DNA from: Bugulina stolonifera
Taxonomy: Eukaryota; Bryozoa; Gymnolaemata; Cheilostomatida; Bugulidae
Direction of reading: 5' to 3'
Length of the DNA stretch: 64,000 bases
Assembly: GCA_935421135.1 (NCBI GenBank)
Contig: OW285189.1
Span: 23,996,298 to 24,060,297 of the forward strand
This document shows positions 61 through 35,800 of this stretch, one piece after another (positions within the stretch are counted from its first letter, which is position 1; the number at the start of each line of letters is the position of its first letter). The notes beneath the pieces are model-generated. The model made no database searches. It saw only the letters and a program-made list of their open reading frames with translations, and was not told the origin of the DNA. Both the position numbers and the translations under genes were made by a program.

Positions 61-2205
61 GTGTTCCAGTCCGAGCTGTCAAAAAGAGCATCCAACATGG
101 CGCAGGTGAGGGACACAGCTAAGGATCTGATAGAGAAGAGTGAAGACAGCATGCCAGAGCTCCAGTCTCAGCTGATAGACCTTACTACCAGCTGGGACAA
201 GGTACGGTGTATTATCTTATGCTGCAGTATTTACCTTACTACCAGCTGGGATAAGGTATGGTGTATTATCCTATACTATTACCTTACTACCAGCTGGGAT
301 AAGGTATGGTGTATTATCCTATACTATTACCTTACTACCAGCTGGGACAAGATATGGTGTATTATCCTATACTATTACCTTACTACCAGCTGGGACAAGG
401 TATGGTGTATTATCCTATGCTATTTACCTGAACTTCTAGCTGGGATAAGGTATGGTGTATTATCCTATGCTATTACCTTACTACCAGCTGGGATAAGGCA
501 TGGTGTATTATCTTATGCTATTTACCTGAACTTCTAGCTGGGATAAGGTATGGTGTATTATCCTATGCTATTACCTTACTACCAGCTGGGACAAGGTATG
601 GTGTATTATCCTATACTATTACCTTACTACCAGCTGGGATAAGGTATGGTGTATTATCCTATACTATTACCTTACTACCAGCTGGGATAAGATATGGTGT
701 ATTATCCTATGCTATTTACCTGAACTACTAGCTGGGATAAGATATGGTGTATTATCCTATGCTATTCAGCATATTTCACTTTATGTACATGTAGTTGTGT
801 TATTCTGAAGGTGTATCTCGGCAACATACCATAATATGGTAATCGTATTGACTGCAGGTTACAAAACAGGCAGAGAGGAGACAAACCCGAATCCAGGATG
901 CATTCCAACAGGCTGAGGAATTCAGTAGAAGAGCCAACAGCTTCCTTGAATGGGTGTCAGACTGTGAACATCAACTCAGGCTAGACCCGGAGCGGGCTGA
1001 TGATGAGACAGCCTTACAAACTGCACTCGATGAGCATAAGGTACCTGGTCTTGTATATTTTTATCTTGTTCTGCTGAGGTTAGCATTATGGCTTACTGTC
1101 CCTATTCCTTTTCTCACTATGACTACATATGATCCTCCATTGCTTGTCAGGCATTCATTGGAGAAGTAGCCAATCAGAGGCAGATGCTGAGCGACACGCT
1201 ACGTCTCGGTGATGATATTCTCTCCAGATCTCACCAGGAGGCGGTGCCCATCATGAAGAAGTGGCTCATCATCCTCAGACAGCACATGGAGAATGTTGAC
1301 ACCTGGTCAGCCAACTTTGAGAGAAGTATTCAGGTACTAAAACAGCAGTCATATAGCAGTCGTATAGCATACTAATTGCTGTTCATACACTGTTTGGTAC
1401 TGTGTAACCACAGTGCAGATGTCACTAGAGCTTATGATTGATTGCAGGACTCTTTGGATAGCATAAGGAACAGTTCCTCTCTGATAGAAGAACTTCTGGG
1501 CTGGTTAGCCAGCAGTGAGAGCACTCTGGCAGCTATGGAAGAAGATCCACTTCCTCCTGAGAGTTCTGTTATTGAGGAGATGCTGAGAGAGCACCAGGTC
1601 GGTTTGTGCAGGTGTCACTGTGTGTGTGAATGTGTCACTATGTGTGTACAGGTGTCACACTGAATATACTATACATTGTACACAAATGTCACTATATTAT
1701 GTGTAGCGCACCTTTCAGTTTACGAGTTATTAAAATGGTCATATAAATTGTGTTATTTAATTTTACATCCAACTCCATTGTGCTGCAGGAATTTGAAGCT
1801 GAAATATCCAGTCGACAGTCTGAAGTTGATAGATTGACTAAACCTAAAAGACGAACAGATAGTAGATCAGGGGCCGCAACTCCCACAGGACGCCGTAGCA
1901 GTGCTGGTACACCATCAGGCAGAAGGTATTGTAATATAATAGTCAATGCACTAACTGATATGTATTATATTCTATTAGTTCTTTCAACTACTAACCTTTG
2001 TTGAAAATCCGTCAAACTTTACCCTAATTCCTACTGTGTGAATATCTTTAGGAGTAAGGCAGATCTGAGACGTACCTCACAAACCCCCGAACCAGCATTC
2101 AAGAATCCGAGGGTACAGGCTCTGTCAGTTAAGTGGAGGCAGGTGTGGCTCATGACAATGGACAGGAGACGGAGGCTGCAGGATGCTCTAGACCAACAGA
2201 GAGAG
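61..2205 (+). CDS. Spectraplakin exons 1-6: last spectrin-like repeats and linker
   Basis: Six exons (61-201, 858-1040, 1151-1333, 1448-1597, 1789-1925, 2052-2205). The first four have phase-0 borders and encode amphipathic, Glu/Gln/Arg-rich helices with the spaced tryptophans typical of spectrin repeats (TTSWDK, FLEWVSDCE, MKKWLIIL, LLGWLASSE). The fifth is different: after a short helix it becomes Arg/Ser/Thr/Gly-rich (from PKRRTDSRSG onwards), a flexible insert. The sixth resumes with the NPRV...KWRQVW...RRRRLQDALD helix that precedes the EF-hands in this family. Exons 2 and 3 are both 183 bp. These repeats act as a spacer rod in the cytoplasm. Confidence 0.93.
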
Positions 2206-5200
2206 GTACTTATTCTAGTGAATAGTTAGTATTACCAGTAGTTGTTATAGTTATACAGTGTGGTCCATGTAGTATTGGGATTAGTACAGTCATGTACCAT
2301 CAAATCTATTGAACTCTTTGGTAACCTTGTGTGGAGGCCTTCTGCTGCTGTTTGTTTACCATGTTCTAAAGGTGTGTAACTGTTCCTCCCCATACATGGA
2401 GTAGATTTACTCTACTTGCAGGCTAGATAATAGTAGACACTATTTCTTTCCTGCTGTGTGTATTTCCATTTAACCTCACGAATATATTCAAATGACTCTG
2501 TTATAATGGTGATTTGTATATTGATGCAGTTACCCTTTTATCTTGTAGAAACAGGTAGTCCACCCAGTAGTTTGATTGGTTTAGTTACCATAACTATAAC
2601 TATATTATGCTATGATTATTTTACCTTCTCTAATCCACTATAATTACCTAATTTAATTAACTGGAGCTGATTTTCCAATCATTACTGTAACTCCTGAATC
2701 CTCTCCAATATACCTTGTACTTCCATAACATCGGTGATAAAATACTAAGGCTAATACCTGATTCGTGTGAGGTGGATGAATGGAAAAGCCCCTAATTAAA
2801 TAAGATTCCCACCAAAAAGGAGTGTATAAAGCTATTACTTGATCTGAGGGGTTCAACAGTGTACACATCCATGTTTCCCCTAACTTCAGTCACCTCTGCC
2901 ATTGCTGATACTCTAGTGTTAGCTATAAAGAGTAGACCATTAGTTGGTAATGCATTTCACTTTACAAACTATTTCAACTTATTTTGCTCTTATTTTCTTA
3001 CTTACATGTAATGATTAGATTAATATAGATTATGTACTGTAAGCCATATTGTACCAGTTTCAAACAAATCGGCCATAACCATGGCTTCTATATCGTTGTA
3101 ATGGTATACAGCTATTATTTTTCACCAAGAAATAATTGTGAATTCTACTGTTTGTAATATTCTAATCAACTTTCCAAGTTTTAATGCCTATTCATGTAAT
3201 CTGACAGCGTGCTAAGTTGAGAAACTTCAACTTTGACGACTGGAAGAAAAGGTACATGAACTGGATGGACCATAATAAGACCAGAGTTATGGACTTCTTC
3301 AGGAGGATAGACAAGGACAGGGATGGCAAAGTCTCACGTGATGAGTTTGTGTCTGGCATTCTACAATCAAGTAAGACATACGATTGTTACTGTAGTAGTG
3401 TATATAGTTGGTGTCATTCATATAATACACTGAACCAAGATCACTTCAATATTGTAATTGTATCTATTTATCAAAGTGCTCACGGGTCTAACCCTAAGTA
3501 CATAGTATTATAATTGTAAACGTGTACATTCTATCAAAAGACTTCTCTGTTAATATATTAAATGACCAGACAAGAGATAGTCAAGTTGTGTAATTGTTTA
3601 ATCTGGTCAAGTTTATTTATATGCACACTGTTCCGTTTCAGCTGCCCACTGGAAGCGATATCTTGTTCAAATATACCCTGAAATAGGTACAGGATGGGTT
3701 ACTATGTTTGCGCTACGTAATCTTGCATTCCAGCACACTGATATTCTTGTGTGGCTTGCTCTACCTTATAGTGTGAATATTATTTTGTTACTATATTGTA
3801 TATATTATTATATGCGTTCAATATAGGACCTTCACTGTAGCACTGGTGATCATATTCTCTATGCATTGCATGCGTTTGTTACGTTCTCCAACTTTGAACA
3901 TTATAATATTTCTGTAAAGCTGTGAATGCTACAGAACTTCCTTTTCCCTTCTTCAGTTGAACTTTTCAGTTAACCTTGGAGTGACCTTGGGTATGACATG
4001 TAGTGTATAGTATATGACATGCATTGTATTTAATTCAGCATGCCAAAAGAGAACATGATTCAAGGATAAAATTAGGATGTTACAACTGTGAATTTATACA
4101 ATAATGTATTCAATATTTTTTGTTAGAATATAATATGTCTTTTTATATGATTAGACTAAGTTACATGAAGAAGTCCGTTTCCTGTGTAATCAGTCAGTCA
4201 GTCAGTCAGTCAGTCAGTCAGTCAGTTTGTGTAGGTGGTCGGGTTCTTACTGAATATAGTATGTATATTATACACTACCACAGTAGGGACTATTAGTGTT
4301 GTGATAGATGTTATGTGATAGCTGTATTTAGTACTTACTGTACACTATGTTGTTCAACAGAATTCCCCACCTCACAACCAGAACTGGAGGCTGTAGCTGA
4401 TAGATTTGATAAGAACAAAGACGGTTACATAGACTACAAGGAATTCATGATGGCATTGAGAACTGAGATAGAGATAGAGGTAAAACGTCTACAGTTAATC
4501 TAGTAGTTAGTATATACACTGTACATGTATTTAGTACAAAATGTATCAGTTGTTATAAAACTAATGACTGTCTCTACATGTAGAAGGAGAAGAAATCAGA
4601 CGCTGAAAGGATCCACGATGAGGTGGAGAAGCAGGTGAAGAGATGCTGCTGTCAAAAACAGTTTGCCATCCAGAAAGTGTCAGATAATAAATATGTGGTA
4701 AGTGTAGCCATGTAGTATGTATAAATATGTGGTAAGTGTAGCCATGTGGTATGTATAAATATGTGGTAAGTGTAGCCATGTAGTATGTATAAATATGTGG
4801 TAAGTGTAGCCATGTGGTATGTATAAATATGTGGTAAGTGTAGCTACGTGGTATGTATGAATATGTGGTAAGTGTAGCTACGTAGTATGTATGAATATGT
4901 GGTAAGTGTAGCCATGTGGTATGTATAAATATGTGGTAAGTGTAGCTACGTAGTATGTATGAATATGTGGTAAGTGTAGCCATGTGGTATGTATAAATAT
5001 GTGGTAAGTGTAGCTACGTAGTATGTATGAATATGTGGTAAGTGTAGCCATGTGGTATGTATAAATATGTGGTAAGTGTAGCCATGTGGTATGTATAAAT
5101 ATGTGGTAAGTGCAGTCATGTGGTATGTATGAATATGTGGTAAGTGTAGCTACGTGGTATGTATGAATATGTGGTAAGTGTAGCCATGTGGTACGTATAA

Positions 5201-35041: not shown

Positions 35042-35800
35042 GTCTGTAGTTTAGATGGTATGTAGTTTAGATGGTGTGTAGTTTAGATGGTGTGTAGTTT
35101 AGATGGTGTGTAGTTTCGAAGGTGTGTAGTTTAGATGGTGTGTAGTTTAGTTGATATGTAGTTTGGATGGTGTGTAGTTTAGATGGTGTGTAGTTTAGAC
35201 GGTGTGTAGTTTAGATGGTATGTAGTTTGGATGGTGTGTAGTTTAGATGGTGTGTAGTTTAGACGGTGTGTAGTTTAGATGGTATGTAGTTTAGATGGTA
35301 TGTAGTTTAGATGGTGTGTAGTTTAGATGGTGTGTAGTTTCGAAGGTGTGTAGTTTAGATGGTGTGTAGTTTAGTTGATATGTAGTTTGGATGGTGTGTA
35401 GTTTAGATGGTGTGTAGTTTAGACGGTGTGTAGTTTAGATGGTATGTAGTTTAGATGGTGTGTAGTTTAGATGGGGTGTAGTTTAGATGGTATGTAGTTT
35501 AGATGGTGTGTAGTTTAGATGGTATGTAGCTTAGATGGTGTGTAGTTTAGATGGTATGTAGTTTAGATGGTGTGTAGTTTAGTTGATATGTAGTTTGGAT
35601 GGTGTGTAGTTTAGATGGTGTGTAGTTTAGACGGTGTGTAGTTTAGATGGTATGTAGTTTGGATGGTGTGTAGTTTAGATGGTATGTAGTTTAGAAGGTA
35701 TGTAGTTTAGATGGTATGTAGTTTAGATGGTATGTAGTTTAGATGGTGTGTAGTTTAGATGGTGCGTAGTTTAGACATATAAAATACATGCACACAGCAA
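35042..35800 (+). repeat. 16-bp minisatellite starting at a zinc-finger exon donor
   Basis: About 46 units of TGTGTAGTTTAGATGG and variants. Variant order repeats: the CGAAGG variant recurs 224 bp apart (35113, 35340) and the TTGATATG variant at about 35152, 35376 and 35584, so there is a higher-order unit of 13-14 monomers. At 35776 the exon end (ACATATAAAATACATGCACA) and donor reappear, showing the exon tail was copied with the array. Related units follow other zinc-finger exons at 36040, 42134 and 58378. Confidence 0.9.

What the first reader, a model, noticed from the sequence alone, without database searches (positions are those of the whole stretch)
190..35800. Minisatellites repeatedly arise on 5' splice sites
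Five arrays begin at or contain an exon end with its donor: 190-766 (48 bp) and 4689-5820 (34 bp) in spectraplakin, 29781-30486 (56 bp, minus) at kinesin exon 2, 32934-33255 (22 bp) at a kinesin stalk exon, and 35042-35800 (16 bp) at a zinc-finger exon. The genes, unit lengths and sequences are unrelated; only the position is shared. Tandem duplication around AGGT is a known route to new introns, but serial amplification of donors in several genes of one region suggests a local process, such as donor-linked breaks, R-loops at exon ends or replication slippage, or tolerance of donor arrays. I know of no description of this as a general pattern.
Basis: partly seen in the sequence, partly recalled or inferred. 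Interest (0 to 1): 0.9.

Follow-up and report, generated by a model that had tools for sequence, protein, structure and literature searches.

The report
Intron minisatellites that swallow splice sites
In part of one dynein gene of this unnamed, likely animal genome, 23 of 29 predicted introns hold a block of short repeated DNA and four of the blocks also copy the signal that starts the intron, which likely happens because repeats grow inside very short introns and catch that signal about as often as chance would.

Summary
In detail: all five arrays exist, starts within 11 and ends within 47 bases of the stated places, at exon ends. Two lie in a live spectraplakin gene, three in degenerate or unverified exon copies. 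It is not local: AGGTAAG triplets number 3,136 in the 235-Mb genome, the reversed word 137, and arrays end dynein, PDE4 and ABC-like exons on another chromosome. A donor-seeking process is not needed. In 21.9 kb of a DNAH10-like gene, 23 of 29 predicted introns hold an array, and arrays are 75% of intron DNA. Four of 28 arrays cross donors; uniform placement predicts 5.2. Four reach over acceptors, but by 1-8 bases only. Without arrays, one unit left, introns have a median of 125 bp, like array-free ones (121 bp); array length explains 92% of intron-length variance. Donor arrays are thus likely by-products of minisatellite growth in short introns. In kind they match the 'mirages' of amphioxus (PMC3087553); new are scale and the link to intron length. 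The decoy control did not complete, so some donor preference remains possible.

The parts
179..766 (+). 48-bp minisatellite, 12.0 copies, spanning the 5' splice site at 201|202 of a spectraplakin exon; unit = 23 exon bases + about 25 intron bases; 4 of 12 copies have lost GT
   Evidence: an open frame runs through the first copies (16-residue repeats)
61..201 (+). spectraplakin exon before array 1
   Evidence: exon predictor; next exon 858-1040 Spectrin E 0.0017
4584..4698 (+). exon with the first half of the GAS2 domain, ends at the donor inside array 2
   Evidence: Pfam GAS2 1.8e-6; MACF1 9e-33 with the next exon joined
4687..5816 (+). 34-bp minisatellite, 33.2 copies, spanning the donor at 4698|4699; the word ATAAATAT lies in the exon end and again at the right end of the array
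5979..6098 (+). next spectraplakin exon, second half of GAS2
   Evidence: Pfam GAS2 7.4e-21
1610..1658 (+). 20-bp array, 2.5 copies, 13 bp downstream of the donor at 1597; in the intron, not spanning
29788..30439 (-). 56-bp minisatellite, 11.6 copies, spanning the exon end and GTAAG donor of a frameshifted kinesin motor-exon copy
17250..17345 (+). sibling copy of the same kinesin exon and donor with one unit only (unexpanded state; in-frame stop)
32942..33259 (+). 22-bp minisatellite, 14.5 copies, on AAAG|GTGGGT; ends at a second AAAGGTG
   Evidence: in-frame stop before the donor
33980..34145 (+). sibling exon and donor with one unit only: CACAG|GTGGGTGTGTCAGATAGCAAGGTG
35041..35775 (+). 16-bp minisatellite, 45.9 copies, beginning at the end of a zinc-finger-like exon; two other places (36.05 kb and 42.14 kb) hold about two units of the same word
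   Evidence: zinc-finger label from sequence only

Best explanation
The arrays are private minisatellites that likely grew inside short introns, and in the genes tested they include 5' splice sites about as often as uniform placement predicts, so no donor-seeking process is needed. Inferred steps: a chance duplication between two short direct repeats copies a segment (16-63 bp in the dynein gene); slippage or unequal exchange then multiplies it. The unexpanded intron is only about 120 bp long, so a segment of this size often reaches over a boundary. When the left repeat is in the exon and the right one in the intron, every unit carries a donor. The change is probably tolerated because the first donor copy still ends the exon unchanged and the rest is removed as intron. 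Arrays at 3' splice sites occur too but reach only a few bases into the exon in the dynein gene, probably because the 3' signals need more sequence. Shown: positions, unit structure, counts, the residual intron of about 120 bp, and two unexpanded siblings. Inferred: the order of events, the repair mechanism and which donor is used.
For: DNAH10-like gene, C1:284900-306800 (L031, L039, L040): 23 of 29 predicted introns hold at least one array; 10,852 of 14,548 intron bases are array, but 79 of 5,469 exon bases. Donors crossed by 4 of 28 arrays (by 8-31 bases), 5.18 expected; without one weak exon 5.03, and without two introns that likely hide missed exons 4 of 23 with 4.76 expected. Pooled with spectraplakin, L019 and L015 introns 7 of 36, 6.23 expected. 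Array-free introns 94-175 bp (n 6, median 121); bearing introns minus array plus one unit, median 125 (n 23), p 0.79; r2 0.92 for intron length on array length (0.91 and 0.95 in the variants). Units unrelated: 430 of 435 pairs share no 12-mer. Exon chain matches DNAH10 over 14-1787 of 1787. Unexpanded siblings at 17.26 and 34.11 kb, with short words shared by exon side and intron (ACAC, AAAGGTG; ATAAATAT in array 2).
Against: All five named window arrays are on donors, none on acceptors. In the dynein gene acceptors are reached by 4 of 28 arrays but only by 1, 2, 4 and 8 bases, donors by 8, 10, 15 and 31, so the two ends are not alike. In the sample, arrays on or within 60 bp after a predicted donor number 10 (2.0 expected, at most 9 in 300 permutations), on the acceptor side 4 (1.9 expected); that null moved arrays over the whole locus, not inside introns, and two of the ten (L026, L028) lie in retroelement-like or repetitive coding frames. 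AGGTAAG triplets exceed the reversed word 23-fold in matches, singles outside arrays only 1.5-fold; I could not show that intron location alone gives so much. Only one gene was tested at depth, 0.3 Mb from a chromosome end, picked because one of its introns bore a donor array (that array counts here as not crossing, since the repeat finder starts it 20 bases past the donor; with it 5 of 28). In spectraplakin 2 of 4 arrays cross donors, 0.51 expected.
Confidence: 0.65

Rival explanations
1. A donor-linked mutational process, such as breaks or R-loops at exon ends, seeds arrays at 5' splice sites.
For: Tandem AGGTAAG 3,136 matches against 137 reversed; donor side 10 against acceptor side 4 in the sample; all five window arrays on donors; 4 of 7 independent C1-tip arrays on donors; deeper crossing at donors than at acceptors in the dynein gene.
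Against: Dynein donors crossed at chance, 4 of 28 with 5.2 expected; median gap from array to donor 49.5 bp and to acceptor 55 bp; 2 of 7 C1-tip arrays at acceptors; the word selects donors by design.
Confidence: 0.23
2. Donor arrays are kept by selection because repeated donors give useful alternative splicing or protein extension (array 1 would add 16-residue repeats in frame).
For: Array 1 is open in frame through its first copies; human IFI6 uses repeat units as alternative donors (PMC4526556, passages).
Against: 4 of 12 copies of array 1 have lost GT; in array 2 the donor columns are not the most conserved (rank 8 of 34); 9 of 28 dynein periods are multiples of three, as chance gives.
Confidence: 0.05
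3. The arrays are copies of one mobile or introner-like repeat family that inserts at splice sites.
For: One dispersed family, AGGTAAGAGCACACAC, stands at three places of C1 (L035-L037).
Against: 430 of 435 pairs of dynein units share no 12-mer; units examined copy their own exon end.
Confidence: 0.03
4. Assembly artefact in tandem repeats.
For: Copy numbers of long arrays can be wrong in any assembly (general knowledge).
Against: Diverged copies inside arrays, many loci, unexpanded siblings.
Confidence: 0.02

Closest known systems
'Mirages' of amphioxus: minisatellite-like duplications of intron-exon boundaries (globin, Adh3, TnC, PGBD5 genes); PMC3087553 section 16 read, PMC3902484 passages
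   Same: Tandem units spanning 5' or 3' boundaries, many with AG/GT signals, in unrelated genes
   Different: There described gene by gene, in what I saw without a rate; here 23 of 29 predicted introns of one gene, donor crossing at chance rate, and arrays explain intron length. No RNA or haplotype data here.
Human IFI6 (6-16) minisatellite that provides multiple splice donors (Turri 1995; cited in PMC4526556, passages seen; the original is not held)
   Same: A minisatellite at an exon end gives several donors
   Different: There downstream copies are used as donors; use is unknown here
Human internal tandem repeats at exon-intron boundaries in segmental duplications (PMC2812944, passages)
   Same: About 30-bp minisatellites at boundaries of genes
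   Different: Recent paralogs only; tied to novel introns, not to the length of existing ones
Intron gain by tandem duplication of AGGT segments (Rogers model; PMC4974935, passages)
   Same: Tandem duplication around AGGT
   Different: That makes a new intron inside an exon; here introns are lengthened
C. elegans CeRep25B, a minisatellite found mostly in introns and enriched near alternative exons (PMC4039745, passages)
   Same: Intronic minisatellites with a possible effect on splicing
   Different: One repeat family, against a private unit per intron here

Membership tests
Mirages (boundary minisatellites) | Tandem units that span an exon-intron boundary | tested here: met
Mirages (boundary minisatellites) | Both 5' and 3' boundaries can be affected | tested here: met
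   donors; acceptors: 4 of 28 dynein arrays, by 1-8 bases; L032, where the unit holds exon bases, and L034, where the array abuts the acceptor
Mirages (boundary minisatellites) | Regular splicing is not disturbed | not testable with these tools
   no RNA data
Mirages (boundary minisatellites) | Copy number differs between haplotypes | not testable with these tools
   one assembly; sibling exons differ in copy number, which is not the same test
AGGT tandem-duplication intron gain | A new intron arises inside a formerly continuous exon | tested here: inconclusive
   No species comparison; array-bearing introns without their arrays have the length of array-free introns, which fits older introns
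IFI6-type multiple donor minisatellite | Several repeat copies used as donors | not testable with these tools
   no RNA data

The most novel reading that the evidence does not exclude
In this genome intron length is written by minisatellites: introns start at about 120 bp, and nearly all longer ones owe their length to private arrays. Splice sites are duplicated as a side effect, which gives a standing supply of ready-made alternative donors in hundreds of genes, strongest towards chromosome ends.
Probability: 0.4. Interest if true: 0.78.

Novelty: new variant of a known kind. Interest (0 to 1): 0.6.

Why it matters
What makes introns long is usually sought in transposons. Here most of the intron length in the examined part of one gene is minisatellite, with a clean unexpanded baseline, so growth of introns and duplication of splice sites can be measured array by array. 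It also turns the amphioxus 'mirages' from a curiosity into an expected by-product that can be tested with a simple formula.

Tried and rejected
Donor-specific breakage: set back because donor crossing in the verified gene is at chance. Selection on donor columns in array 2: donor window ranks 8 of 34, no support. Ab initio exons in the 200-kb sample: too noisy for the main test; the predictor was trained on spectraplakin and C1 exons and takes coding repeats and retroelement frames for exons; arrays at donors 4 of 110 (1.35 expected), at acceptors 4 (1.41 expected). It missed or misplaced some spectraplakin exons (GAS2 among them), so for these exons were set by hand; one of the four window arrays on the donor side follows the stop codon, so three count. 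Trend of arrays towards chromosome ends: Spearman -0.48, p 0.03, 20 loci; but the four loci within 1 Mb against the others p 0.07. An array on C2 with similar words (L038) is not on a verified exon end, nor is the second array of L030. A decoy-word control and a 9-base donor search did not complete. Literature searches: (two were malformed); that I found no account of minisatellites as the main source of intron length rests only, in this open-licence library.

Rows dropped: six predicted exons inside dynein arrays (not used in 102 and later); two dynein arrays outside complete introns; a period-4 array of spectraplakin. The joined chain leaves out one weak exon (4372-4457), and its alignment shows target residues without a query partner at two introns (904-2386 and 8104-9490), which likely hide missed exons; one search repeats the test without these.
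Full report
Observation. Array 2 is the firmest: the GAS2 domain of a spectraplakin is split exactly at its donor, 4698|4699, and continues at 5979. Array 1 begins 23 bases before the donor at 201|202. Array 3 lies on a kinesin motor-exon copy that is frameshifted; a sibling copy at 17.26 kb on the other strand has one unit only. Array 4 lies after an exon-like stretch with an in-frame stop; a sibling at 34.11 kb has one unit only and shows a second donor-like word about 22 bases on, the period of the array. 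Array 5 begins at an exon end of zinc-finger type by its sequence; two other places in the window hold about two units of the same 16-mer. So two of five are in a live gene.

Not local. The window is C3:23,996,298-24,060,297 of a 235-Mb assembly in 27 contigs. Three AGGTAAG words spaced 8-38 bases occur 3,136 times on both strands, the same pattern read backwards 137 times. Outside arrays the two words occur 44 and 30 times in 264 kb. The first 100 listed places (of 1,561 forward) form nine arrays in 1.31 Mb of C1; three are one dispersed family, which leaves seven independent cases. Four have their first donor word at an exon end: a dynein heavy chain exon (Pfam 6e-12; DNAH10 structures 4e-21), a PDE4 UCR exon (3e-6), an exon reading VHFTYPSRPDYKVLK (ABC transporter by recalled motif; no Pfam hit) and an open exon with a weak MENTAL hit (1e-4). 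By the repeat finder's own borders three of these four cross the donor and the dynein one starts 20 bases after it. Two lie at acceptors of exons on the other strand: in L032 the unit holds exon bases (exon recalled as USP39-like; no Pfam hit), in L034 the array abuts a protein kinase exon (4e-9, 2.6e-10). In the unbiased sample of 20 x 10 kb, L019 holds a 31-bp array across a donor that splits an immunoglobulin I-set domain (1e-21).

Is the donor special? I fetched 20 kb further along the dynein gene and predicted exons. The joined chain aligns to DNAH10 over residues 14-1787 of 1787, so the joined exons are real; one weak exon was left out of that chain and two introns likely hide missed exons. 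Of 29 predicted introns 23 hold at least one array; 10,852 of 14,548 intron bases are array, but only 79 of 5,469 exon bases. Four of 28 arrays cross donors, by 8, 10, 15 and 31 bases. If a unit of length p is placed uniformly over an unexpanded intron of length L0, the chance to cross one end is (p-1)/(L0+p-1), which sums to 5.18; P of four or more is 0.80. Without the weak exon 5.03 are expected, and without the two doubtful introns as well 4 of 23 are seen and 4.76 expected. With spectraplakin, L019 and L015 introns added, 7 of 36 cross donors and 6.23 are expected; in spectraplakin alone it is 2 of 4 against 0.51. Four of 28 arrays also reach over acceptors, but by 1, 2, 4 and 8 bases only, so deep crossing of acceptors looks rarer than uniform placement would give; constraint at 3' splice sites is the likely reason.

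What the arrays do to introns. Array-free dynein introns measure 94-175 bp (six, median 121). Array-bearing ones have a median of 435 bp, but minus array plus one unit they come to 125 bp (23 introns; p 0.79 against array-free). Array length explains 92% of intron-length variance (91% and 95% in the variants). Units differ from intron to intron (430 of 435 pairs share no 12-mer). In spectraplakin arrays are 28% of intron bases and sit in 4 of 12 introns, and two introns of about 1 kb have no minisatellite; so array growth is not the only source of length there. In the rest of the window, mostly transposon and pseudogene fragments, arrays are 7%. Arrays are denser towards chromosome ends in the sample (Spearman -0.48, p 0.03; four loci within 1 Mb against the rest p 0.07), and the dynein gene is 0.3 Mb from one, so the gene may be extreme.

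Mechanism. The sibling copies show the one-unit state beside the expanded one. In arrays 2, 3 and 4 a short word (ATAAATAT, ACAC, AAAGGTG) stands both at the exon side and at the right end of the unit. Duplication between such words, then slippage or unequal exchange, is the likely route (inferred). Tolerance is likely because the first donor keeps the exon unchanged (inferred). In array 1 use of a later donor would add 16-residue repeats in frame; no RNA was available.

Evidence the other way. The five window arrays named are on donors only. The sample has 10 arrays on or within 60 bp after predicted donors (2.0 expected, at most 9 in 300 permutations) and 4 on the acceptor side (1.9 expected); that null does not confine arrays to introns, and two of the ten lie in retroelement-like or repetitive frames. 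The 23-fold word excess is not fully accounted for, because the decoy search did not complete.

Known kinds. Boundary minisatellites were named mirages in amphioxus, where both boundaries are affected and splicing is reported undisturbed (PMC3087553, section 16 read; PMC3902484, passages). Human IFI6 and repeats in segmental duplications are further cases (PMC4526556 and PMC2812944, passages). The present arrays meet the structural features of mirages; splicing and haplotype features were not testable. New are the rate test and the link to intron length.

Noticed in passing
L016:4345-4773 and 4799-5160: Two adjacent 31-bp arrays whose units look like reverse complements of each other, facing arrays of one unit.
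   Followed up: no
L035, L036, L037 (C1:1.22, 1.27, 1.31 Mb): A dispersed family built on AGGTAAGAGCACACAC, with a shared upstream stretch in L035 and L036; not at an exon that I could see; source of many of the listed AGGTAAG triplets.
   Followed up: partly
window 9960-10110: Long near-perfect inverted repeat around CTCACCCTGACAGTGAGTCACTGTCAGGGTGAG.
   Followed up: no
window 34540-34680: Inverted repeat around AACTATTTACTGTAACAGTAAATAGTT that includes a partial copy of the exon-like stretch at 33.45 kb.
   Followed up: no
window 41912-42055: 12-bp unit AATTCATCAAGC repeated 12 times without a difference, so probably very recent.
   Followed up: no
   Followed up: no
window 27612-28193 and 57365-58207, minus: Two similar transposase-like frames; the first has a DUF4371 match (8.7e-6, below the curated cut-off), the second was not scanned.
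   Followed up: partly
20 sample loci L009-L028: Minisatellite density falls with distance from the chromosome end (Spearman -0.48 for bases, -0.53 for counts).
   Followed up: partly
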